64,000 nucleotides of DNA, taken from contig NZ_CP027860.1 in assembly GCF_003015185.1 (NCBI RefSeq), positions 682,001 to 746,000 on the forward strand, in the 5' to 3' direction. Below are positions 5,491-21,957 of this stretch, one piece after another. The position numbers and the translations under genes are program-made. The stretch comes from Ahniella affigens (GTDB lineage: Bacteria > Pseudomonadota > Gammaproteobacteria > Xanthomonadales > Ahniellaceae). The notes below the pieces were generated by a model that did no database searches, was not told the origin of the DNA, and saw only the letters and a list, made by a program, of their open reading frames with translations. Position 1 is the first letter of the stretch; every line of letters starts with the position of its first letter.

Positions 5491-6573
5491 ATGGACACGA
5501 ACCGACTCTGGATTCACAAAGCCCTGACCTGCCTGGAGCGCGAAGCACTGCGTTCGGCCGACACGCATTTGCTGCGACTCGATCTGCCGCCGTTCCCGGG
5601 AATCAGCTTTTATCTGAAGGACGAGGCCTCGCACCCGAGTGGCAGTTTGAAACATCGCTTAGCGCGCTCGCTGTTCCTGTACGCGCTGTGCAACGGCCGG
5701 CTGCGCGAAGGGCAGGTCGTGGTGGACGCGTCCTCCGGCAGCACCGCAATTTCCGAGGCTTGGTTTGCCCGCCTCCTCAGCCTGCCCTTTGTTGCCGTGA
5801 TGCCCGAGCAGACGGCGGCGGCAAAGATCACGGCGATCACGGCACTTGGCGGGCGATGTTTATTGCTGCCCCCAGGCGAGCGCTGCGCGCCGTTTGCGCG
5901 GCAATGGGCCGAAACCGAAGGCGCGTGTTACCTCGACCAATTCGGATTGGCCGAACGGGCGACCGATTGGCGCGGCAACAACAATATCGCCGAGTCCATT
6001 CTCCGGCAGATGGCACTGGAGGCGCATCCTGAACCGCGTTACGTCGTCTGCGGCGCCGGCACTGGCGGCACATCGGCGACGATTGGTCGCTACTTGCGCT
6101 ATCGGCGCCTGCGCACGGCGCTTTGCGTCGCCGAACCGACTGGTGGCGCGTTTGCGGAAGGGTTTCGTACGCGCAGTCGAGATGCCGTACAAACGCGGCC
6201 AAGCATTATCGAAGGCATTGCCCGTCCGCAGGTCGAAAGCGGATTTCTGTTCGACATCGTCGATCTCGTTGAAGAAATTAACGACGTCGACTCGATCGCC
6301 GGCATGCGATTTCTCGAATCGGCGCTCAATCGGCGCTGGGGTGGCTCGTCCGGTTGCAGCTTTGTCGCTGCCATCCGATTGGCTCGTGGCATGCGCGCGG
6401 CGGGGCAGCAAGGATCGATTGTGTTGCTGCTGTGCGACGAGGGAGATCGCTACGCCGACACGCTGTATGACGCCGGCTGGCTGCATGCGCATGGTTACGA
6501 TCTCGCAGCCGCCAGTGTGCGTCTGCATGAACTGATTGGCGGCGATGCCAACGACGTCGCGGACGCTCACTAA
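5491..6573 (+). CDS. PLP-dependent cysteine synthase-fold enzyme, Cds1 (cysteine desulfhydrase)-like
   Basis: A 360-residue fold-type II PLP enzyme. HPSGSLKHRLARSLFLYAL places the Schiff-base lysine at Lys54. SSGSTAISEA (81-90) is the substrate loop and GAGTGGTSATIGRYL the phosphate-binding glycine loop. These blocks resemble the Cds1 group (mycobacterial and fungal cysteine desulfhydrases) more than CysK or CysM. The expected reaction is cysteine to H2S, pyruvate and ammonia, but a related beta-replacement cannot be excluded. The ribosome binding site is weak. Its stop overlaps the rtcR stop by four bases on the other strand, so the two are tightly convergent. Confidence 0.72.
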   Translation: MDTNRLWIHKALTCLEREALRSADTHLLRLDLPPFPGISFYLKDEASHPSGSLKHRLARSLFLYALCNGRLREGQVVVDASSGSTAISEAWFARLLSLPFVAVMPEQTAAAKITAITALGGRCLLLPPGERCAPFARQWAETEGACYLDQFGLAERATDWRGNNNIAESILRQMALEAHPEPRYVVCGAGTGGTSATIGRYLRYRRLRTALCVAEPTGGAFAEGFRTRSRDAVQTRPSIIEGIARPQVESGFLFDIVDLVEEINDVDSIAGMRFLESALNRRWGGSSGCSFVAAIRLARGMRAAGQQGSIVLLLCDEGDRYADTLYDAGWLHAHGYDLAAASVRLHELIGGDANDVADAH

Positions 6574-8171
6574 TTCAATCGGTGCAGCTGCTCGAACTGC
6601 AAGTCAAAGCGAGCCAAGTATTTGCGCAGCCGATCGGCATCGTTGGTCTTTGCCTTTTTCTCCCGACTCGCCTGAAATAACGTGCGGCCGGCATCGCTGA
6701 GTGTGCGACTGGCGCGACAGACGCGAACGACTTCAGCAAGCTGCACGGCATCAAAGCGATCGAGATCGGCATAAGCGTCGCCGAGCAGGTCCGCGAGGCT
6801 GGTGTCGGTTGGCGTGTCCGATTGCTGGTCGCCCCAATGTCGTTTCAGGCGTTGGATTTCCTCCTGCACTACGTCCACGGTAATCCGGCCCGATTCGGAT
6901 AACGTCGCCATGCGCGTGATCGACGCGCCCAGATCGCGGAAATTGCCGGGCCAGACCGCATCGGCGCTCGTTGCAAAGCGCAGATAGGCTTGACGCGCTT
7001 CGCGGTTGAAACGCACTTGCTCATTGTAGTTGCGCGCATAGCGCGACAGTTCGAACTCGAGGTTCGGTTCGATGTCCTCGGCGCGCTCCTTGAGTCCGGG
7101 TAGATAGAACGTCCAGAGATTCAGGCGGGCGAACAGATCGTCGCGAAAGCGGCCTTCGCGCACGGCCACGGCGAGATCGCGATTCGTGCCCGCGATCAAC
7201 TGAAAATCGCTGCTGACTTCCTTGTCCCCACCCAAAGGCGGAAAGCGCTTGTCTTCGATCGCCCGCAACAGCATGGCTTGCTCATCAAGACCGAGTTCGC
7301 CGATTTCGTCGAGGAACAGCAGGCCGCCATCGGCACTCTTCAACAGACCGGCGCGATCACTCTGTGCGCCCGTGAAGGCACCGCGGACATGCCCGAACAG
7401 CGCGCTGCCGGCGCCATCGCCACGCAGCGTTGCGCAGTTCACCTCGACAAACCGGCCGCTCAAGTCCTGGCGCTGCTTTTTCAGCTCGAAGATGTTGCGC
7501 GCGAGTTGGCTCTTGCCCGCGCCAGTCGGACCCATCAGCAGCATGGGCGCGCGCGAACGCATGGCGACACGCTCGATCTGCTCGATCATCCGGTTGAACT
7601 TCGGACTTTGGGTGTTGATGCCGCTCTTCAGAAACTCGGTCGTTTCCTGACTGGCCTTGGAGAACCGCTGCGCGATCTGGTCATAGCGGGCGAGATCCAG
7701 GTCGATGATCGCGTATGAGCCTTGCATGCCTTGGGCGCGATCGCGGGGTGGCGAGGTTTGAATCAATCGTGCGGGCAGAAAGCGCGCCTCGGCCAGCAGA
7801 AACCAGCAGATCTGCGCGACGTGCGTGCCGGTTGTGATGTGGATGAAATATTCCTCGTGCTCCAGATCAAACGGATACCGACGCGAAAAATCGAACAAGG
7901 CCGAGTACATCAGCTCGAAGTCCCAAGGGTCTTTGACATACACGTCGTGCACGCAGACGTCTGTCTGCGGGCTCAGTTGGCGCAGGTCCGTCTGCACAGT
8001 CTTGACGAGGTTGTTGAATCGACGCTGGTCGACCAGCAACTCAATACGGTCTGCCTGGAAGTCCTCGTGTTGCCCGAGCGCAACCGTGGGGCGCCATTTC
8101 TCCCAACGGCCCGGGCCGGCACCCAAATCCATCTGCGTACCGAGGAATCCGATCACGACTTTGCGCTTCAT
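6570..8171 (-). CDS. rtcR: RtcR, sigma-54 activator of the RNA repair operon
   Basis: A 533-residue bacterial enhancer-binding protein. The N-terminal RtcR/CARF-type sensor domain (about 1-180) includes FIHITTGTHVAQ near 109-120. The AAA+ domain has Walker A GPTGAGKS at 214-221, GAFTGA at 264-269 and Walker B GGLLFLDEI at 282-290. In E. coli and Salmonella RtcR senses RNA ends with 2',3'-cyclic phosphate and switches on rtcBA through sigma-54. No Fis-type helix-turn-helix is obvious at the C-terminus; family members use a shorter winged region. The start is the ATG at 8171; a TTG four codons upstream is less likely. It diverges from rsr, its probable target. Confidence 0.93.
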   Translation of the reverse strand: MKRKVVIGFLGTQMDLGAGPGRWEKWRPTVALGQHEDFQADRIELLVDQRRFNNLVKTVQTDLRQLSPQTDVCVHDVYVKDPWDFELMYSALFDFSRRYPFDLEHEEYFIHITTGTHVAQICWFLLAEARFLPARLIQTSPPRDRAQGMQGSYAIIDLDLARYDQIAQRFSKASQETTEFLKSGINTQSPKFNRMIEQIERVAMRSRAPMLLMGPTGAGKSQLARNIFELKKQRQDLSGRFVEVNCATLRGDGAGSALFGHVRGAFTGAQSDRAGLLKSADGGLLFLDEIGELGLDEQAMLLRAIEDKRFPPLGGDKEVSSDFQLIAGTNRDLAVAVREGRFRDDLFARLNLWTFYLPGLKERAEDIEPNLEFELSRYARNYNEQVRFNREARQAYLRFATSADAVWPGNFRDLGASITRMATLSESGRITVDVVQEEIQRLKRHWGDQQSDTPTDTSLADLLGDAYADLDRFDAVQLAEVVRVCRASRTLSDAGRTLFQASREKKAKTNDADRLRKYLARFDLQFEQLHRLN

Positions 8172-8207
8172 GATGCTATCCAAAAATATAAAGTGCGATC
8201 TAAGCGT

Positions 8208-8298: not shown

Positions 8299-8315
8299 TT
8301 GGCACGGGACTTGAT
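8299..8315 (+). promoter_or_regulatory. Sigma-54 (-24/-12) promoter of the rsr-rtcBA operon
   Basis: TTGGCACGGGACTTGAT matches the -24/-12 consensus (TTGGCACG-N4-TTGCW) except that the -12 GC reads GA. It ends 51 bases before the rsr ATG, with rtcR divergent upstream, as expected for an RtcR-controlled promoter. Activator sites should lie in 8172-8290, but I could not define a convincing one. Confidence 0.75.
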
Positions 8316-8366
8316 ATAGACCAGCTATGGATGCGGCGTTCCGCATCGGAGTCAGGAGAACGTGTG

Positions 8367-9899
8367 ATGTTGAACAAGGCATTGAAGCCCGCCCAGAAGC
8401 AACTGTTGACGCCCAACCAGGCTGGCGTGCCAGCGTACGGGTTTGGACCGAAACAGGCGCTCGCGCAGCTCGCCATGACCGGCTGTTTGAACAGCACGTT
8501 CTACAGCTCGGCCGAAGCCCAGTTATCTGAGCTCCTGAAGCGCTGCTTTGAAGTGGATCCGGATTTCGTGGCCAAGACCGCGCTGTATGCGCGCAAGCAC
8601 GGCTACATGAAGGACACGCCGGCATTGTTGGTGGCTTGGCTGGCCAGCTTCGCGGGTGAGCTCGGTGAGCAGGTGTTTCCGAGGGTCATCGACAACGGCG
8701 GCATGCTGCGGAACCTGGTCGGCATCCTGCGGTCTGGTTTGGTGGCGCGCCAGAGCCTTGGTTCGCGACCGAAGCGCTGGGTGCAGCGTTGGCTGGAGCA
8801 GGCTTCGGACGAATCGTTGATCAAGGCCATGGTTGGCAACGATCCGTCGCTGGCCGACGTGATCAAGATGGTGCACCCGCGTGCCCCGTCGCGTGAGCGC
8901 AACGCCTTGTTTGCCTGCATTCTGGGTAGGCCGTGCGATGCCGAGTTGTTGCCAAAAGCCTTGCTCGAATTGGAACGGTTTCGCTTGAATCCGAACCAGC
9001 CGGTGCCGAACGTGCCGTTCCAGTTGTTGACGGGACGCCCGCTCGGCAAGGAGCACTGGATCCAGATCGCCCGTCAGGCCAGTTGGACCATGACCCGCAT
9101 GAATCTCAATACGTTCATGCGCCATGGCGTGCTGGAAGACGAGCCGACGGTGCGCTTGATTGCGCGGCGTCTGGCGGATCGCGATCAGGTGCGACGCGCC
9201 AAGGCGATGCCGTACCAGTTGCTGACCACGTACCAAGCAGCGCTCGCGATTCCCGAGAAGATCCGGCAGGCGTTGCGCACTGCGACCGAGCACGCGATCG
9301 AAAACGTCCCGCGAATCCCCGGTTCCGTGGCGGTGCTGGTCGACGTTAGCGGTTCCATGGAATCGGCCGTGACTGGCTACCGTAATGGTGCGACGTCGAC
9401 GACGCGTTGTGTGGATGTCGCCGGCTTGATGGCGGCGGCCGTGCTGCATCGGAATAGTGGTGCGATGGTGATGCCGTTCAACGATCAAGTGCGGAACTGG
9501 CGGCGACCCGCTCACGGCGGTGTGCTGGAAACCGCGCAGGCGTTGGCGGCTTTGCTCGGCGGTGGCACGCAGTGCAGTGCGCCGTTGGCAGCGTTGAACC
9601 AGATGAGCGTGGCCCCGGATACGGTGATCATGTTCTCGGACAACCAGAGCTGGATGGATGCCCGCCTGGGCGAAACCGAATACCAGCGCCAATGGCGCGT
9701 GCTGAAGCAGCGGAACCCAAATGCCAAGTTGATTTGCGTGGACTTGCAGCCGTACACGAACTCGCAAATCAAGGACCAGCGCGATGTGCTGAACATCGGC
9801 GGTTTCAGTGATGAGATGTTCAAGCGCATTGCTGAGTTCGCAGCTGGGAACTCTGATGGCAAGTTCTGGGTCGATCAGATCGATTCGATGCAGATCTAA
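8367..9899 (+). CDS. rsr: Ro60/TROVE-domain RNA-binding protein (Rsr)
   Basis: A 510-residue Ro60 orthologue. Residues about 1-310 form the TROVE HEAT-repeat ring (QAGVPAYGFGPKQALAQLAMTGCLNSTFY at the start). Residues about 320-510 form a von Willebrand A domain with MIDAS D326-V-S-G-S. Bacterial Rsr binds Y RNAs and helps exoribonucleases such as PNPase degrade structured RNA. AGGAG eight bases before the ATG at 8367 sets the start. It is the first gene after the sigma-54 promoter and is followed by about 800 nt of structured non-coding DNA and then rtcB, the order known from Salmonella (rsr, Y RNA genes, rtcB, rtcA). Confidence 0.95.
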   Translation: MLNKALKPAQKQLLTPNQAGVPAYGFGPKQALAQLAMTGCLNSTFYSSAEAQLSELLKRCFEVDPDFVAKTALYARKHGYMKDTPALLVAWLASFAGELGEQVFPRVIDNGGMLRNLVGILRSGLVARQSLGSRPKRWVQRWLEQASDESLIKAMVGNDPSLADVIKMVHPRAPSRERNALFACILGRPCDAELLPKALLELERFRLNPNQPVPNVPFQLLTGRPLGKEHWIQIARQASWTMTRMNLNTFMRHGVLEDEPTVRLIARRLADRDQVRRAKAMPYQLLTTYQAALAIPEKIRQALRTATEHAIENVPRIPGSVAVLVDVSGSMESAVTGYRNGATSTTRCVDVAGLMAAAVLHRNSGAMVMPFNDQVRNWRRPAHGGVLETAQALAALLGGGTQCSAPLAALNQMSVAPDTVIMFSDNQSWMDARLGETEYQRQWRVLKQRNPNAKLICVDLQPYTNSQIKDQRDVLNIGGFSDEMFKRIAEFAAGNSDGKFWVDQIDSMQI

Positions 9900-10060
9900 G
9901 CCGCGTGCGCGCAAATGAAGTAGAGGAACAGGGGCCAGCGTGACCTTCACCACGCTGGAGCCAAACGCAAATGATCGGACCTTGACTGATCAGCCGTGCG
10001 TGTCGGTGAATGAGGTGAACGGGTTGCCAGCAATGGGGCAGGCAACCGGGAGTAGGTGGT
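9900..10060 (+). other. Structured leader of the non-coding segment after rsr
   Basis: No gene. Two clear hairpins are visible: an 8-bp stem CCAGCGTG/CACGCTGG (9935-9942 with 9951-9958) and a 7-bp stem GGTTGCC/GGCAACC (10022-10028 with 10041-10047). They would be part of the rsr-rtcB transcript, either as a further Y-RNA-like piece or as processing and stability elements. Neither has a T-tract, so neither looks like a simple terminator. Confidence 0.45.
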
Positions 10061-10219
10061 TAGGGAGACTCTGAACAAGTTCAGAGTCGATGCGGGCCAT
10101 GGATGGCCCGCCCAGAATCAAGCGCGCAAGTGCTTGATTCTGGGCACCGAGTCCGGACATGTGCCGGACTCGGTGCGGGTCTGAAAGTCCAGGATGGACT
10201 TGTTCAGACCCTCCTTAGG
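10061..10219 (+). repeat. Multi-hairpin repeat element, copy 1
   Basis: This 159-nt unit folds into five consecutive hairpins: GACTCTGAAC/GTTCAGAGTC, GCGGGCCAT/ATGGCCCGC, CCAGAATCAAGC/GCTTGATTCTGG, CACCGAGTCCGG/CCGGACTCGGTG and GGTCTGAA.AGTCC/GGACT.TTCAGACC. A second copy at 15553-15712 keeps the same order. Its ends (tagggag...ctccttagg) form an imperfect terminal inverted repeat. No coding capacity is evident, and it reads as a non-autonomous palindromic element. Here it sits inside the RNA repair transcript. Confidence 0.8.
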
Positions 10220-10220
10220 A

Positions 10221-10390
10221 AAGCGTGATTGGCAGATTGCAGTCGAATGCCGTCGGGACTACATGGGATCCGCCCGTTCGAACCGGGCACCTGCGCACGC
10301 CGAAAGGCCTGTGCAGGCAACAGGAGCAGCTGAACTCGTTCAGATGTTTCCGAGACGTCTCGAAAATCCTCGTCGAATGCAATCTGAAAG
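10221..10390 (+). ncRNA. Y-RNA-like RNA 1 with tRNA-type T-arm
   Basis: An enclosing stem CAGATTGCA/TGCAATCTG (10233-10241 with 10378-10386) closes a structured domain. Inside are a perfect T-arm (GCCCG-TTCGAAC-CGGGC, 10272-10288), a GAAA-capped hairpin at 10290-10317, small hairpins CTGAA/TTCAG and CGAGA/TCTCG, and CTACAT at 10259-10264 closed by GGA/TCC. Bacterial Y RNAs of the YrlA type pair a Ro-binding stem with a tRNA-like module, and this lies between rsr and rtcB where such RNAs are found. The ends are approximate. A second TGCAATCT at 10413-10420 could compete for the same 5' arm. Confidence 0.7.
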
Positions 10391-10420
10391 TCATGATTTG
10401 CCAAGCGCGTGTTGCAATCT

Positions 10421-10512
10421 CGCGGTCTTGGCCGATCGGCAAATGCAAATGGGACTACATCTTTGAAATGTCCGTCTCGTTGAAACCTTGTTGCCGATCG
10501 GCCAAGCCTGCG
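10421..10512 (+). ncRNA. Y-RNA-like RNA 2 with 16-bp stem
   Basis: A perfect 16-bp inverted repeat (CTTGGCCGATCGGCAA at 10427-10442, complement at 10491-10506) extends by CGCGG/CTGCG (10421-10425 with 10508-10512) after one mismatch. The 48-nt interior holds GGGACTACAT (10451-10460), the same phrase as in RNA 1, closed by GGAC/GTCC, and a TTGAAAC stretch recalling a T-loop but without a good T-stem. The long stem would suit a Ro-binding stalk. There is no T-tract after it, so it is not a plain terminator. Confidence 0.6.
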
Positions 10513-10600
10513 GGCTTAACCAGCATCAGGACGAATGCTCAGCGGTCTACATCGTAATCTGCAGGTTGCTGGTGCAAATCCAGCCATCTGGACGCATCCG
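10513..10600 (+). ncRNA. Y-RNA-like RNA 3, tRNA-like D-arm and T-arm
   Basis: In tRNA order there is a D-arm-like hairpin AGCAT-CAGGACGA-ATGCT (10522-10539), a weak anticodon-like arm GCGG/CTGC enclosing CTACAT (10547-10552), then AGGTT and a T-arm GCTGG-TGCAAAT-CCAGC (10568-10584). The loop differs from a canonical T-loop by G in place of T at position 55. No 7-bp acceptor stem is visible, so this is a mimic, not a tRNA gene. CTACAT is shared with RNAs 1 and 2. Boundaries are uncertain. Confidence 0.55.
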
Positions 10601-10702
10601 CGTGCAGGTGTCGCTCAATGAGATAGAGCAGCAGCAAGACTGCCAACTACTTGTCGTTCGGGTGTGTTGACTGAATCAATGAAAGCAAAGGAGTGGACGA
10701 CC

Positions 10703-11923
10703 ATGACAACTTATAACGAACTGAATGAACACGGTGGCGTCCCAGTCAAGATGTGGACGAAGGGCGTGCCGGTGGAAGACGATGCGATTCGACAGCTGCA
10801 GCAGTTGTCGCGCCTGCCGGTCGTATGGCCGCATGTCGCGGCGATGCCGGACGTGCACGTGGGTATTGGCGCAACCGTTGGCTCGGTGGTGCCGACTCGA
10901 CATGCGATCATTCCGGCGGCGGTTGGTGTCGATATTGGCTGCGGCATGATTGCGGCGCGAACGTCGCTCAAAGCGAACGACTTGCCTGACCAGTTAGGTG
11001 GGGTGCGGACGGCGATTGAGCGCGCGGTGCCGCACGGTCGGTCCGGTAACCACGGCACCCGCGACAAAGGGGCCTGGAACAAGGCGCCAAAAGCGGCCGA
11101 GCAGGCGTGGTCGGCATTGGAGAGCGATTTCCGACGACTGTGCGAGCTGCATCCGCGATTGAAGAACACGAACAACTTGAGCCATCTCGGCACGCTCGGC
11201 ACCGGCAACCACTTTGTGGAATTGTGTTTGGACCAAGTTGACCAGGTCTGGGTCATGTTGCACTCGGGTTCGCGTGGCGTCGGCAATGCCATCGGCACGC
11301 ACTTCATCGAGTTGGCGCAGGCCGACATGCGGAATCATGTCGCCAACTTGCCGCATCGTGACCTCGCGTACTTTCAGGAAGGCTCGCCGCACTTTGCCGA
11401 CTATGTGTTCGCGGTCGACTGGGCGCAGCGATTCGCCCGGGAGAACCGCGCGATCATGATGCACAACACGCTGGCTGCACTGGCCAAGGTGATCCCGAAA
11501 CCGTTCACCCTCACGGAGGAGGCGGTCAACTGTCACCACAACTACGTGCAGAAAGAGACGCACTTCGGTGAGTCCCTATTCGTGACGCGGAAGGGCGCGG
11601 TCAGCGCGCAAAAGGGCCAGCTCGGCATCATCCCAGGTTCGATGGGTGCGAAGAGCTTCATCGTGCGCGGGCTTGGTAACGAAGCGGCGTTGTGCTCGTG
11701 CTCGCATGGTGCGGGTCGGGTGATGAGCCGGACTCGGGCCAAGCAACTGATCACGCTGGAAGCGCACGTCGAGGCGACCAAGCATGTGGAATGCCGAAAG
11801 GACGTCCACGTAATCGACGAATCACCCGCGGCGTACAAGCCGATCGATCAAGTCATGGCGGCGCAGTCCGACCTGGTCGAAATTGTCCATACCTTGCGCC
11901 AAGTGGTGTGTGTCAAGGGTTGA
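10703..11923 (+). CDS. rtcB: RNA 3'-phosphate/5'-OH ligase RtcB
   Basis: A 406-residue GTP- and Mn-dependent RNA ligase that joins 2',3'-cyclic phosphate or 3'-phosphate ends to 5'-OH ends. It shows VKMWTKGVP near the start, metal-binding MPDVHVG (about 48-53), VGVDIGCGM with Cys80, HFVEL, HSGSRGVGNAIG, CHHNYV and SCSHGAGR, whose His335 corresponds to the E. coli guanylated His337. AAAGGAG lies nine bases before the ATG at 10703; an ATG eight codons upstream lacks a comparable site. It follows the Y-RNA-like segment in the operon. Confidence 0.97.
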   Translation: MTTYNELNEHGGVPVKMWTKGVPVEDDAIRQLQQLSRLPVVWPHVAAMPDVHVGIGATVGSVVPTRHAIIPAAVGVDIGCGMIAARTSLKANDLPDQLGGVRTAIERAVPHGRSGNHGTRDKGAWNKAPKAAEQAWSALESDFRRLCELHPRLKNTNNLSHLGTLGTGNHFVELCLDQVDQVWVMLHSGSRGVGNAIGTHFIELAQADMRNHVANLPHRDLAYFQEGSPHFADYVFAVDWAQRFARENRAIMMHNTLAALAKVIPKPFTLTEEAVNCHHNYVQKETHFGESLFVTRKGAVSAQKGQLGIIPGSMGAKSFIVRGLGNEAALCSCSHGAGRVMSRTRAKQLITLEAHVEATKHVECRKDVHVIDESPAAYKPIDQVMAAQSDLVEIVHTLRQVVCVKG

Positions 11924-12017: not shown

Positions 12018-12737
12018 ATGCGAGCGGATATGAAACAAGTCTTGATTGAGCGGCCGAGATCAGGCTGGCGACTCAAGCACAAACGAACCAACAAGCCCCG
12101 TGCCAGCGATTGGAACGGCGAAGATCTCGATATTGAACGGCAGGCGCCCCGCTTGCGTCAGAGCAAGCACTTTGACGATCTGCTCAGCCCGCTGCGCAAA
12201 TACTTGCGAGCCCAGGTCGGTCGGCCATGGGACAACGTCTATTCGGAGATGTGCGCCACGATTGACCGACGCACCGTATCGGGGCGGCATTTGTTTGAGC
12301 ACGTCGAATGGGAGGTCTTGATTGACGCCGTGCTTGACGAGCAAGGGAAGCCTTGTTACCCCGCGCATCGCCATTGGCGGCAGGGCCGGGCTGTCGGATT
12401 GTTCGTGCATCCGCGAACGCGGCTGTTGTGCTATCAAGCTGGTGATTCGGCGCGTGAGCGCAAACGAAAAAGGGAAAGCAAGCACGCCGAGTTCGTGGCG
12501 AATCATCGCGATCTGGGGCAGGGGGCATTTCTGCTCAAGCGACGCGGGATCTGGCATTGGGTTTTGGGTGCTCGGGTTGATGACCACCTTCAACCGAATC
12601 AACGGAAGCGCACGCAACGGGTCGACTTTATGATCGGGTCGAGTGCGTACATGTTGCTGAAAGCGCGCCAGTTGAACACCAAAGAGTTGCGTCAGCTCGA
12701 ACTCAGTAACGATCCTTGCGACGCCCATACTGATTGA
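12018..12737 (+). CDS. Conserved hypothetical protein of the RNA repair operon
   Basis: A 239-residue, basic, soluble protein with no signal peptide or membrane segment. It starts MRADMKQVLIERPRSGWR and has a central LSPLRKYLRAQVGRPWDNVYSEMC block and a second one, HLFEHVEWEV. From memory, proteins with this ERPR start and VGRPWDKVxSEIC block recur near TROVE and RtcB genes in diverse bacteria, but I know no assigned function. The high Arg/Lys content and the place between rtcB and rtcA suggest an RNA-binding role; this is inference. AGGAG seven bases before the ATG supports the start. Confidence 0.8.
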   Translation: MRADMKQVLIERPRSGWRLKHKRTNKPRASDWNGEDLDIERQAPRLRQSKHFDDLLSPLRKYLRAQVGRPWDNVYSEMCATIDRRTVSGRHLFEHVEWEVLIDAVLDEQGKPCYPAHRHWRQGRAVGLFVHPRTRLLCYQAGDSARERKRKRESKHAEFVANHRDLGQGAFLLKRRGIWHWVLGARVDDHLQPNQRKRTQRVDFMIGSSAYMLLKARQLNTKELRQLELSNDPCDAHTD

Positions 12738-12842
12738 AGCAGGACTTATCTCCGGCGAAGATCGCAGTGCCACTGAGTTCTGCAAGATTAGGATGTACCA
12801 CCAAGCTGTGACTTTGTTGTCGACGCGTTGAAGGAGTTGAAG

Positions 12843-13880
12843 ATGCAAGCGCAAGGACGGTCCAATATTGAAATCGACGGCAGCGTCGGCGAAGGCGGCG
12901 GGCAGATCCTGCGCACGTCTTTGAGCTTGTCGGTGATCACCGGTCGGCCGATTCGAATCACACGGATTCGGGCTGGGCGCGAAAAACCCGGTCTGATGCG
13001 GCAACATCTGACCTGCGTGAAAGCGGCACAGCAGATATCAGCTGCGGAAGTCGAAGGCGCGGAGCTGGGTTCGTCCACGCTCGTGTTTCGGCCGCAAGCA
13101 CTCGTGGGCGGCAGTCACCATTTTGCGATTGGCACAGCAGGCAGCACGTCGCTCGTGCTGCAGACGGTGCTGCCGGCGTTGCTCTGTGCGAAAGAGATCA
13201 GTCGCATGACGGTCGAGGGTGGCACGCACAACATGCTTGCGCCGAGTACCTGCTTTCTGCAGCGGGCGTTTCTGCCGCAACTGCGACGCATGGGCGCGGA
13301 TGTGAGCCTGGAAGTGGTGCGCGAGGGCTTGTTCCCGGCTGGCGGTGGTGCGGTCGTCTTGCAAGTTCGGCCCGCGGCATTGCATGGGCTGTCGTTGTGC
13401 GAGCGCGGGACCAAGCAATCGATACAGGCTGAGGCGTTGCTGGCATCGGTGCCAGAGCACGTCGGCTTGCGCGAGATCACCGCGGTGGCCGATCACTATA
13501 AGCTGCGCCGCGAGCATATTCGTCACCGCGTGCTGGGCTCACGGACGGGGCCAGGCAATGTGCTCAGTGTGTGGGCCGAGTTTGAGAACGTCGTGGAACT
13601 GGTGACGGTGCATGGCGAGCGCCGTTTGCCTGCAGAGCAAGTTGCCGCGAAAGCTTGTGCCGAGTTGGATGCTTACCTCGACAGCGGCGCCGTGGTTGGT
13701 GAGTATCTCGCCGATCAATTGTTGCTGCCGATGTGGCTCGCGGGCGCAGGGCGGTTTCACTGCCTGGCGCCTAGTCTGCATACGACCACCAATTTGCAGA
13801 CCTTGAGTCTGTTTGGGGGTCCGAGCTTGGTGTGCGAAAAGTTGGCCAATGGCGCGCATGAAATCCGAGTAGCGGGTTGA
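12843..13880 (+). CDS. rtcA: RNA 3'-terminal phosphate cyclase RtcA
   Basis: A 345-residue cyclase that uses ATP to convert RNA 3'-phosphate to 2',3'-cyclic phosphate, making ends for RtcB. It has the N-terminal EIDGSVGEGGGQILRTSLSLS, REKPGLMRQHLTCV, the glycine-rich GTAGSTSLVLQTVLP, and HTTTNLQTL with His313 at the adenylation position (E. coli His309). AAGGAG six bases before the ATG at 12843 sets the start; a TTG five codons upstream is possible but weaker. It is the last gene of the operon, followed directly by a REP array. Confidence 0.96.
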   Translation: MQAQGRSNIEIDGSVGEGGGQILRTSLSLSVITGRPIRITRIRAGREKPGLMRQHLTCVKAAQQISAAEVEGAELGSSTLVFRPQALVGGSHHFAIGTAGSTSLVLQTVLPALLCAKEISRMTVEGGTHNMLAPSTCFLQRAFLPQLRRMGADVSLEVVREGLFPAGGGAVVLQVRPAALHGLSLCERGTKQSIQAEALLASVPEHVGLREITAVADHYKLRREHIRHRVLGSRTGPGNVLSVWAEFENVVELVTVHGERRLPAEQVAAKACAELDAYLDSGAVVGEYLADQLLLPMWLAGAGRFHCLAPSLHTTTNLQTLSLFGGPSLVCEKLANGAHEIRVAG

Positions 13881-15548: not shown

Positions 15549-16138
15549 TGATTGGGGAGCCTCTGAACAAGTTCAGAGGCGATGCGCGCCATGGATGGCC
15601 CGCCCAGAATCGAGCACGGAAGTTCTTGATTGTGGAGCCCCGAGTCCGGACATGTGCCGGACTCGGGGCGGGTCTGAAAGTCCAGGATGGACTTACTCAG
15701 ACCCTCCTTAGGCGGATAGACGCGCAGGCGGACGCTGACGTCGCCGGCACTGGTATGAAAGGTCACAGTCGCCTCGGTGCCTACCGGCATTTTCTGTTTT
15801 GGCCCAATCAACATCAGGTGCCAGCCACCAGGCGCGAGCTTCAAGGTGTCGTTTGCCTTGATTGTGTAAGGATCGGCCCGGCGCATTTTCATCATGCCGC
15901 CCGCCATACTCATCTCGTGCAATTCAACTTTCTCGAACTCCGGGCTCGCCAGCGACTGAATGAGCAGATCGCGGTTTGAGCCGTTGCGGAGCTCGCCATA
16001 ACCGGCCAGCACTTCAGCAGTCGGTGGCGCCAGCCGAATCCAAGGGTCAAACACGGTTAGTGCCGGCGATTCAGCGGTCGTGGCGGCATTCGCCATGATC
16101 GAGCAACCAAGGAGCAGTGTAGCGAGCAGTCTTTTCAT
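15545..16138 (-). CDS. Periplasmic copper chaperone PCu(A)C with repeat-derived C-terminal tail
   Basis: A 197-residue exported protein with a signal peptide (cleavage near ANA, residue 18). The PCu(A)C motif H(M)x10Mx21HxM is complete: His74, Met76, Met85, His107, Met109. Such proteins bind Cu(I) and help load the CuA or CuB site of cytochrome oxidase. The conserved domain ends near residue 142 (VRLRVYPP). About 53 further residues (143-195) are translated from the 160-nt multi-hairpin repeat, so the original stop was probably lost when the element inserted. The new stop overlaps the PhzF start. Confidence 0.88.
   Translation of the reverse strand: MKRLLATLLLGCSIMANAATTAESPALTVFDPWIRLAPPTAEVLAGYGELRNGSNRDLLIQSLASPEFEKVELHEMSMAGGMMKMRRADPYTIKANDTLKLAPGGWHLMLIGPKQKMPVGTEATVTFHTSAGDVSVRLRVYPPKEGLSKSILDFQTRPESGTCPDSGLHNQELPCSILGGPSMARIASELVQRLPNQ
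15553..15712. repeat. Multi-hairpin repeat element, copy 2
   Basis: A 160-nt unit homologous to 10061-10219. Relative to copy 1, the first stem has A-T replaced by C-G on both sides (GACTC/GAGTC to GCCTC/GAGGC), and the fourth changes CACC/GGTG to CCCC/GGGG. These are compensatory changes. The third hairpin has decayed. The element lies inside the 3' end of the copper chaperone reading frame and abuts the PhzF start. Confidence 0.82.
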
Positions 16139-21883: not shown

Positions 21884-21957
21884 TGGGGGATCGTTCAACG
21901 GTAGGACAACGGACTCTGACTCCGTTTATCTAGGTTCGAATCCTAGTCCCCCAGCCA
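21884..21957 (+). tRNA. tRNA-Gln (CTG)
   Basis: A complete cloverleaf: acceptor TGGGGGA (21884-21890) with TCCCCCA (21947-21953), anticodon stem ACGGA/TCCGT around loop CTCTGAC with anticodon CTG at 21916-21918, T-arm CTAGG-TTCGAAT-CCTAG (21930-21946), discriminator G and encoded CCA (21955-21957). Confidence 0.96.

What the first reader, a model, noticed from the sequence alone, without database searches (positions are those of the whole stretch)
9900..10702. A run of up to three tRNA-mimicking Y-RNA-like modules between rsr and rtcB
The 803-nt gap contains three separate structures that each carry CTACAT in a small closed loop (10259-10264, 10455-10460, 10547-10552). Two are followed by a perfect 5-bp/7-nt T-arm. 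Known bacterial operons carry one or two Y RNAs here. Three related modules plus an inserted repeat would be an unusually expanded set. The shared motif is seen directly; the Y RNA assignment rests on position and tRNA-like shape.
Basis: partly seen in the sequence, partly recalled or inferred. Interest (0 to 1): 0.85.

Follow-up and report, generated by a model that had tools for sequence, protein, structure and literature searches.

The report
Run of three Y RNAs
Between two RNA-repair genes this bacterium carries three small RNAs built on the same predicted protein-binding handle, one imitating a transfer RNA, one imitating part of one and one bare; relatives carry such runs too, so the run is ordinary, but in some relatives the imitation extends to the anticodon loop, the part of a transfer RNA whose breakage switches on the related repair system of Salmonella.

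Summary
In detail: three CTACAT motifs at the stated places, each inside a separate Y-RNA module on the + strand between rsr and rtcB of an RtcR-type RNA-repair operon. Covariance models built without the window find all three: 10238-10381 (50.7 bits, T-arm model), 10434-10499 (59.4, mini model), 10526-10662 (75.7, tRNA-like model). They are Y RNAs, but the middle one has no tRNA-like part (YrlB-like plan), the first has a T arm without D arm, and three is not unusual: in 74 rtcB-bounded gaps (window included) the median is 3, range 1-8; in its own order the median is 2. The 'inserted repeat' is a 151-bp MITE-like element; 40 near-full copies were listed. Unexpected: tRNA-like modules extend to the anticodon arm. 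In relatives, 34 of 51 modules with room for it close a 3-bp stem around a 7-nt loop (5.4 by shuffling), with U33 in 27 of 28 distinct loops. In open forms, as in module 3 here, the handle leaves through the anticodon loop and the anticodon stem covaries. Rsr binding, transcription and function are inferred, not shown.

The parts
6573..8183 (-). rtcR, sigma-54 activator of RNA-repair operons, divergent from rsr
   Evidence: Pfam RtcR 269.9 bits; NCBIfam NF038308 816.1 bits, cut-off 650
8300..8313 (+). sigma-54-promoter-like site TGGCACGGGACTTG, -12 C missing (weak)
   Evidence: the relaxed pattern is in 24 of 75 rtcR-rsr gaps examined (duplicate loci included), background 0.031 per 300 bp; the strict pattern, in 17 of 75, is absent here
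8331..9899 (+). rsr, Ro60-like ring protein
   Evidence: Pfam vWA_Ro60 51.4 bits and TROVE 25.7 bits, both above cut-off; NCBIfam Rsr equivalog only 52.2 bits of 900 needed
10060..10218 (.). MITE-like repeat 10064-10214 of several hairpins, flanked by the 4-bp duplication TTAG (10060-10063, 10215-10218)
   Evidence: 40 near-full copies listed at 91-100% including itself (285 candidates, only 40 scored); 16 of 17 copies compared have identical 4-bp YTAR flanks
10238..10381 (+). Y module 1: long outer stem (arms up to 10214-10246/10373-10405), GAATGC, CTACAT, T arm 10272-10288, acceptor-like hairpin; the D arm is replaced by a plain hairpin
   Evidence: R3 (T-arm model) 50.7 bits, E 3.8e-12; R2 43.1 bits, E 1e-10; Rfam YrlA only 22.1 bits, at noise level
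10428..10505 (+). Y module 2: mini form, 15-bp perfect outer stem, AATGC, GGGAC/GTCTC inner stem, CTACAT, CCTTGTT, no tRNA arms
   Evidence: R1 59.4 bits, E 1.5e-14 for 10434-10499, the only R1 hit in 64 kb at E up to 10; Rfam YrlA core 30.6 bits, E 2.2e-5 in a 111-base search
10526..10662 (+). Y module 3: YrlA-type permuted tRNA mimic (T arm 10568-10584, acceptor hairpin, D arm 10613-10629)
   Evidence: R2 75.7 bits, E 1.8e-20; Rfam YrlA 50.4 bits, E 5.6e-10
10552..10562 (+). 3' half of an opened anticodon arm in module 3: U33 10552, CGT 34-36, AA 37-38, stem strand 10558-10562; CTGC 10559-10562 pairs with GCAG 10631-10634 after the D arm
   Evidence: the two strands covary across open-form modules (21 of 40 unique pairs fully paired versus 1.75 by shuffling)
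10706..11923 (+). rtcB, RNA ligase
   Evidence: Pfam RtcB 419.5 bits; no NCBIfam RtcB model reaches its cut-off
12828..13880 (+). rtcA, RNA 3'-phosphate cyclase
   Evidence: Pfam RTC 248.3 bits; NCBIfam PRK04204.1-2 410 bits, cut-off 352

Best explanation
The gap encodes a run of three Y RNAs, co-directional with rsr and rtcB in an rtcR / rsr-(Y)n-rtcB-rtcA RNA-repair operon. Each RNA has a constant handle (outer stem, GAATGC, inner stem, CTACAT, CTTGTC) that Rsr should bind. The variable inner part decides what else is held: nothing in module 2, a T-arm fragment in module 1, and in module 3 a tRNA circularly permuted through its anticodon loop. When tRNAs are broken in the anticodon loop, RtcR would switch the operon on. 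Rsr loaded with the different Y RNAs would then recruit or fend off tRNA-handling enzymes (PNPase, modification enzymes, nucleases) while RtcA and RtcB mend the tRNAs. Shown here: gene order, three modules, their predicted structures, covariation and linkage to rsr. Inferred: Rsr binding, transcription and every functional step.
For: Three models trained without the window find all three modules; after them the next hits in the 64 kb are at most 12.2 bits. Covariation: 13 of 14 pairs in the mini alignment and 24 of 32 in the tRNA-like alignment have changes on both sides. Linkage: among 61 relative genomes the mini model has 7 hits, all at rsr loci, in 6 genomes, and none in the 53 genomes without any Rsr match. 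All 74 rtcB-bounded gaps carry at least one module. RtcR as sensor of 5' tRNA halves, and the Y stem and tRNA-like part as Rsr and PNPase contacts: passages of PMC7790460 and PMC8394870.
Against: No expression or binding data. None of the three reaches Rfam's gathering score. R2 is not specific: outside rsr loci it scores up to 45.0 bits in other genomes, above module 1's 43.1. R3 was built for module 1 after this was seen; it gives module 1 50.7 bits and at most 15.6 on a tRNA cluster of this genome, but it was not run on whole genomes. The whole-genome R1 search used strict filters and scored 84 candidates per genome, and modules of 3 of its 6 hit genomes were in the training set. The -12 element of the promoter-like site is imperfect.
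Confidence: 0.78

Rival explanations
1. The structures are decayed tRNA genes or chance tRNA-like hairpins, not Y RNAs.
For: Y-RNA models cross-react with real tRNAs: RF02553 scores 30.9 bits on a tRNA cluster of this genome, above module 1's 22.1, and R2 matches in 57 of 61 genomes although only 8 have any Rsr match.
Against: ARAGORN finds no tRNA in the gap. The mini model has no tRNA arms and its whole-genome hits lie at rsr only. On the tRNA cluster of this genome R2 reaches 29.7 and R3 15.6 bits, below all three modules. Strand bias 354 versus 3. Handle pairs covary.
Confidence: 0.04
2. The gap's hairpins mainly tune rtcB expression in cis, as processing sites, attenuators or RNA-stability elements, and are not separate Rsr cargo.
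For: They lie between two co-directional genes of one operon; the gap also holds a MITE-like element of several hairpins.
Against: Conserved GAATGC and CTTGTC residues and the tRNA-like domains are not needed for a cis hairpin. Mini modules recur near rsr in viral contigs in whose held flanks no RtcB match was found, for example L112 and L134.
Confidence: 0.12
3. The run is an unusual expansion special to this genome.
For: The three modules differ in architecture and an extra repeat is inserted; in its own order the median count is 2.
Against: Median 3, range 1-8, in 74 rtcB-bounded gaps; 9 of the 23 gaps of its own order have three or four, itself included.
Confidence: 0.03
4. The tRNA-like Y RNAs are decoys: they show anticodon-loop nucleases, RtcR or RtcB a mock tRNA, intact-looking in closed forms and cut-looking in open forms.
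For: Closed anticodon hairpin in 34 of 51, shuffle mean 5.4; U33 in 27 of 28 unique closed loops; the anticodon stem covaries in open forms. PMC7790460 raises competitive inhibition of the nuclease by YrlA (passage).
Against: The same paper saw no YrlA fragments and concludes that it is not a substrate of the nuclease (passage). Triplets are diverse and 10 of 28 unique closed loops have A34, which argues against a single nuclease target. Minis have no anticodon loop to offer.
Confidence: 0.25

Closest known systems
YrlA (Rfam RF02553)
   Same: Module 3: same handle, T arm before D arm, acceptor hairpin, and a four-pair stem in the consensus where a tRNA has its anticodon stem (the comparison is my reading)
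   Different: Below gathering score (50.4 of 69); 10 more bases between CTAC and the T arm, which look like the 3' half of an anticodon loop; the Rfam consensus has only 7 nt there
YrlB (Rfam RF02565)
   Same: Module 2: a short handle without tRNA arms; the Rfam consensus, shown on L098, also reads GAAUGC...GAUUACAU...UUGUC
   Different: 17.7 bits, E 0.21, gathering 97; in the same 111-base search a microRNA family scores higher (21.9 bits), so the score is no evidence and the likeness is one of plan
rsr-yrlBA-rtcBA operon of Salmonella (PMC7790460, passages seen)
   Same: RtcR, Rsr, Y RNAs, RtcB, RtcA in one locus
   Different: Three modules instead of two; an unassigned 239-aa ORF (12018-12737) between rtcB and rtcA; a MITE-like insertion
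Deinococcus Rsr / Y RNA / PNPase (passages of PMC8394870 and PMC7790460 seen; primary papers not held)
   Same: A Rsr ring with a Y RNA as tether
   Different: No PNPase link tested here; runs of up to 8 modules in relatives by my descriptor

Membership tests
Bacterial Y RNA (Rsr-linked) | Encoded beside rsr on the same strand | tested here: met
   relatives:
Bacterial Y RNA (Rsr-linked) | Outer stem with GAATGC and CTTGTC (handle), covarying in relatives | tested here: met
   module 2 reads CAAATGC/CTTGTTG, an A-U pair where most have G-C
Bacterial Y RNA (Rsr-linked) | Bound by Rsr as a discrete RNA | not testable with these tools
   needs pull-down or RNA-seq
YrlA RF02553 | Covariance score above the gathering score of 69 | tested here: not met
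   module 3 50.4, module 2 30.6, module 1 22.1 bits
YrlA RF02553 | T arm, acceptor hairpin and D arm in permuted order | tested here: met
   met by module 3 only; module 1 lacks the D arm, module 2 lacks all
YrlB RF02565 | Covariance score above the gathering score of 97 | tested here: not met
   17.7 bits for module 2
tRNA gene | Cloverleaf called by ARAGORN | tested here: not met
   the only tRNA in the window is at 21884
Twister-sister ribozyme RF02681 | Score above the gathering score of 34 | tested here: not met
   25.7 bits, E 0.0068, overlapping module 3; its GGUGCAA...CC block coincides with the T arm

The most novel reading that the evidence does not exclude
Y RNAs of RNA-repair operons are a repertoire of stand-ins held on one Rsr handle, and the best-developed ones copy the whole tRNA, anticodon arm included, opened where anticodon nucleases cut. 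Runs of them with different loops would let Rsr sense, bait or sort the very lesions that RtcR detects and RtcB repairs. Other members copy class-II (Leu-like) tRNAs permuted in the D loop, and possibly helix 69-71 of 23S rRNA.
Probability: 0.3. Interest if true: 0.85.

Novelty: new variant of a known kind. Interest (0 to 1): 0.55.

Why it matters
The window's run is ordinary for its relatives, yet all three of its RNAs fall below Rfam's YrlA and YrlB thresholds, so such runs are probably under-annotated. The anticodon arm found in tRNA-like Y RNAs would link the RNA part of the operon directly to the lesion the operon answers to, cuts in the anticodon loop. It gives a simple test of what these RNAs do: swap or delete the loop and ask whether nuclease protection, RtcR signalling or Rsr cargo changes.

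Tried and rejected
Real tRNAs as the source of the Rfam hits: three RF02553 hits at G000:C1:4392.9-4393.6 kb lie in a tRNA cluster, so bit scores alone were not trusted. R2 matches in 57 of 61 genomes. Beyond the rsr loci the only cross-hit I checked is that same cluster (29.7 bits); that the others are also tandem tRNA pairs, the 3' half of one followed by the 5' half of the next looking like a permuted tRNA, is inference. Specificity is argued from R1 and, for module 1, from R3. In the genome search R2 returned modules 1 and 3 but not module 2, under stricter filters.

Twister-sister ribozyme: below its gathering score, coincides with the T arm. Module 1's Rfam score of 22.1 is no better than another family's 21.2 in the same search and was not used. 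A second Y locus in the genome: none shown; of the ten RF02553 hits the last two were not examined and two others (L005, L007) only by tRNA calling, which found none.

23S-like Y module: a loose 14-letter pattern scan of viral contigs gave 120 matches, stopped at its limit, with no discrimination, and was dropped. Among loci held before that scan the pattern is in 3: L094, L098 and L103. Rfam reported no rRNA match in L098 at E 0.5 or less.

Rows dropped before counts: loci whose Rsr match ended before residue 500, three loci that repeat the window, flanks shorter than 250 nt, duplicate loci (same first 300 nt, plus six short copies of loci fetched again) before the class counts, leaving 155 flanks, 98 cellular and 57 viral. 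Of the 98 cellular flanks 3 had no module (L029, L092, L184); of the 57 viral ones 45 had none by the descriptor. Of 123 modules classed T+D, 122 passed the stricter T-arm pattern; 51 had 20-24 nt before the T arm, 54 had 13-19, 14 fewer and 3 more; 113 passed the D-arm pattern used. R1 was built on 53 of 72 mini modules, R2 on 55 of 123 T+D and R3 on 28 of 62 T-only modules, the window in none. Relatives of the window's own family or order (L019, L020, L023 and others) are in the training sets. The count of 305 includes training sequences. Class counts rest on my descriptor; its 'other' group (60) and a few very long modules include chance matches, and it misses modules seen by eye (L022 and L170 show more than the one it counts). 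The 74 gaps include 26 with a distant RtcB (40% identity or less). The Rsr search kept the best 80 of 511 relatives.

Full report
OBSERVATION. The 803-nt gap between the rsr stop (9899) and rtcB holds CTACAT at 10259, 10455 and 10547. Two are followed by 5-bp/7-nt T arms (10272-10288 and 10568-10584). ARAGORN calls no tRNA in the gap.

SETTING. The genes are rtcR (6573-8183, divergent), rsr (8331-9899), rtcB (10706-11923), an unassigned 239-aa ORF (12018-12737) and rtcA (12828-13880). Rsr passes Pfam's Ro60 vWA and TROVE cut-offs but not NCBIfam's Rsr equivalog (52.2 of 900 bits), and RtcB passes Pfam but no NCBIfam cut-off. A sigma-54-like TGGCAC-N5-TTG lies at 8300, lacking the -12 C; the strict form is in 17 of 75 rtcR-rsr gaps examined (duplicate loci included), the relaxed one in 24 of 75, against 0.005 and 0.031 per 300 bp of background. 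I recall that Ahniella would fit the genome size; this was not tested.

ARE THEY Y RNAs? Rfam YrlA (RF02553): 50.4 bits for 10528-10663 and 22.1 bits for 10240-10382 in a 1.5-kb search, where another family reaches 21.2; 30.6 bits, E 2.2e-5, for 10436-10500, with the tRNA-like part deleted, in a 111-base search. None reaches the gathering score. I therefore collected Rsr loci: 80 of 511 from named genomes, 66 from viral contigs, and 27 of 398 genomes of the order. I scanned their 3' flanks with a descriptor drawn by eye from the window and six relatives. It found 354 modules in 219,996 bp (duplicates included), against 6.0 per mononucleotide shuffle and 3 on the antisense strand; in the window itself it also gives three hits outside the gap. 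Three covariance models were then built without the window: R1 from 53 mini modules, R2 from 55 tRNA-like ones, R3 from 28 T-arm-only ones. R1 has one hit in the 64-kb window at E up to 10: module 2, 59.4 bits, E 1.5e-14. R2 hits module 3 (75.7 bits), module 2 (44.8) and module 1 (43.1); the next is 10.7. R3 hits module 1 (50.7 bits, E 3.8e-12), module 2 (43.6) and module 3 (42.4); the next is 12.2. Pairs with changes on both sides: 13 of 14 for the minis and 24 of 32 for the tRNA-like set.

LINKAGE AND SPECIFICITY. On 61 relative genomes R1 has 7 hits, all at rsr loci, in 6 genomes (modules of three of them, G005, G028 and G055, were in the training set). Rsr matched in 8 of the 61: the two without an R1 hit are G008, whose rsr runs off the contig end, and G007, a weak 83-residue match with stops. 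None of the 53 genomes without an Rsr match has an R1 hit; the search used strict filters and scored 84 candidates per genome. In viral-contig loci R1 finds 84 matches at E 0.01 or less in 66 loci, all on the rsr strand (seven modules from five of these loci were in the training set). R2 is less specific: it matches in 57 of 61 genomes, up to 45.0 bits outside rsr loci. In this genome its best such match is a tRNA cluster at 29.7 bits. R3 gives that cluster 15.6 bits at most.

IS THREE UNUSUAL? No. After removing duplicates, 74 cellular gaps bounded by rtcB, the window among them, carry 1 (12), 2 (18), 3 (23), 4 (9), 5 (6), 6 (3), 7 (2) or 8 (1) modules; 44 of 74 have three or more. In the 23 gaps of G-handle genomes of its own order the counts are none 1, one 5, two 8, three 8, four 1, median 2. 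The counts come from a strict descriptor that misses some modules; R2 gives 305 matches in 80 loci at E 0.001 or less, training sequences included, and 1 of the 300 rows listed is on the minus strand. Across 98 cellular flanks, 44 have at least one mini, 69 at least one T+D module, and 36 combine a mini with a T or T+D module, as the window does.

ANATOMY OF THE THREE. Module 2: a 15-bp perfect outer stem (10428-10442/10491-10505), AATGC, inner stem GGGAC/GTCTC, CTACAT; it is the bare handle. Rfam's YrlB consensus, shown on L098, has the same plan, GAAUGC...GAUUACAU...UUGUC. I call module 2 YrlB-like by plan; by score it is not a member. Module 1: handle plus T arm plus an 8-bp acceptor-like hairpin; the D arm is replaced by CTGAAC-TC-GTTCAG. 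Module 3: T arm, acceptor hairpin, D arm in permuted order.

THE ANTICODON ARM. Counting back from the T stem with a 5-nt variable loop, the stretch after CTACA in tRNA-like modules looks like an anticodon loop: T at 33 in 73% of 96, A or G at 37 in 90% of 108, A or C at 38 in 92% of 108. Of 122 modules, 51 have 20-24 nt before the T stem and so room for positions 29-31; 34 of these form three pairs 29-31/39-41 around seven bases. Shuffling the 5' triplets among modules gives a mean of 5.4 and a maximum of 16 in 10,000; sliding the frame by 1-3 gives 0 or 1 of 51. Counting identical arms once: 28 of 43, shuffle mean 3.7, maximum 12, with nine different stems. In those 28 loops position 33 is T in 27, 32 is C or T in 26, 37 is A or G in 26; 23 of 28 meet all three. 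By record titles closed forms come from Pseudomonadota, Planctomycetota, Verrucomicrobiota and Myxococcota (phylum names partly recalled) and one viral contig. Open forms, such as module 3, pair 40-43 with the strand after the D arm: 21 of 40 unique cases have all four pairs, shuffle mean 1.75, maximum 7, all 21 different. In closed forms that four-pair stem is not made (2 of 28 unique, shuffle 0.6), but its outer pairs are (27-28 with 42-43: 11 of 12 unique, shuffle 2.2; three pairs: 12 of 20, shuffle 1.9), as expected if the handle enters within the anticodon stem there. In module 3 the stem is CTGC 10559-10562 with GCAG 10631-10634, preceded by T-CGT-AA. So the tRNA is permuted through its anticodon arm and the handle leaves there. 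The shuffles do not correct for shared descent; removing identical arms only reduces it. A review passage describes the YrlA mimic as D, T and acceptor arms (PMC8394870), and the Rfam consensus has only 7 nt between CUAC and the T stem. The primary papers (Chen 2014, Wang 2018, Sim and Wolin 2018) are not held, so I cannot say that the anticodon arm is unreported. My searches of the held library listed no paper on it that I recognised from titles and abstract starts. From memory, Chen 2014 says that at least one Y RNA per species is tRNA-like, which would allow for minis and for several per genome.

THE INSERTED REPEAT. 10064-10214 is one copy of a dispersed element: 40 near-full matches at 91-100% including itself were listed, of 285 candidates with only 40 scored. 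Sixteen of 17 copies compared are flanked by identical 4-bp YTAR sequences, TTAG here. A second copy lies in the window at about 15552-15712. That is a MITE-like insertion; from memory YTAR duplications are typical of IS701-type elements, not tested. It lies just upstream of module 1 and interrupts none of the three modules as the models bound them.

MECHANISM. Passages of PMC7790460 report that RtcR's CARF domain binds 5' tRNA halves with cyclic phosphate ends made by cleavage in the anticodon loop, and that the operon then switches on. PMC8394870 (passage) describes the Y RNA stem as the Rsr-binding part and the tRNA-like part as the PNPase-binding part. Putting these with the anatomy, I think it most likely that the run supplies Rsr with several adaptors. 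Whether the anticodon-bearing ones also act as baits is open: the same paper saw no YrlA fragments, but Rfam's YrlA consensus has no room for the loop.

VERDICT. Real, correctly located, mostly correctly named, but a typical run rather than an expanded one. The interest lies in what the comparison showed about the family.

Noticed in passing
window 10060-10218 and about 15552-15712; copies across G000: A 151-bp MITE-like element of several hairpins with 4-bp YTAR target duplications (16 of 17 copies compared); 40 near-full copies listed including this one, some in tandem.
   Followed up: partly
L094 about 8558-8690, L103 about 8557-8690, L098:8238-8443: Modules with a Y handle whose inner part resembles 23S rRNA helix 69-71: L098 29 nt at 89.7% identity to E. 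coli 23S 1909-1937 (E 0.001), L094 22 nt to 1916-1937 (E 0.14). A possible rRNA-mimicking Y RNA; Rfam saw no rRNA in L098 at E 0.5 or less.
   Followed up: partly
L054:7870-8003, L071:7818-7961, L087:7822-7959, L090:8166-8308: Y modules that look like class-II (Leu-like) tRNAs permuted in the D loop: GGTAGACGC or similar after CTACA, a long variable arm, T arm, then TGGCG(G)AA (by eye).
   Followed up: no
L082:7562-8148 and L094:7562-8153: Undibacterium runs of five mini Y RNAs in a row followed by one T-arm module; R1 gives 6 hits in each locus in this stretch.
   Followed up: partly
L020 (G028 contig 5, rsr-rtcB gap): Tandem array of roughly 120-nt units, most carrying the 5' half of a Y handle (GCCGAGTGGCGAATGCTGTTGGGG), ending in one complete mini module.
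   Followed up: no
L023:4604-4680: An ARAGORN-called tRNA-Asp gene lies between Y modules in a rsr-rtcB gap.
   Followed up: no
window 12018-12737: 239-aa ORF between rtcB and rtcA without a Pfam or NCBIfam match at E 0.001; among the loci held only L023 has a near-full-length relative (40% identity), between its rtcA and rtcB.
   Followed up: partly
tandem tRNA genes, e.g. G000:C1:4393438-4393538: Y-RNA models score on the junction of adjacent tRNA genes, because 3' half plus next 5' half is a permuted tRNA: a source of false YrlA calls and a conceivable origin of tRNA-like Y RNAs.
   Followed up: partly
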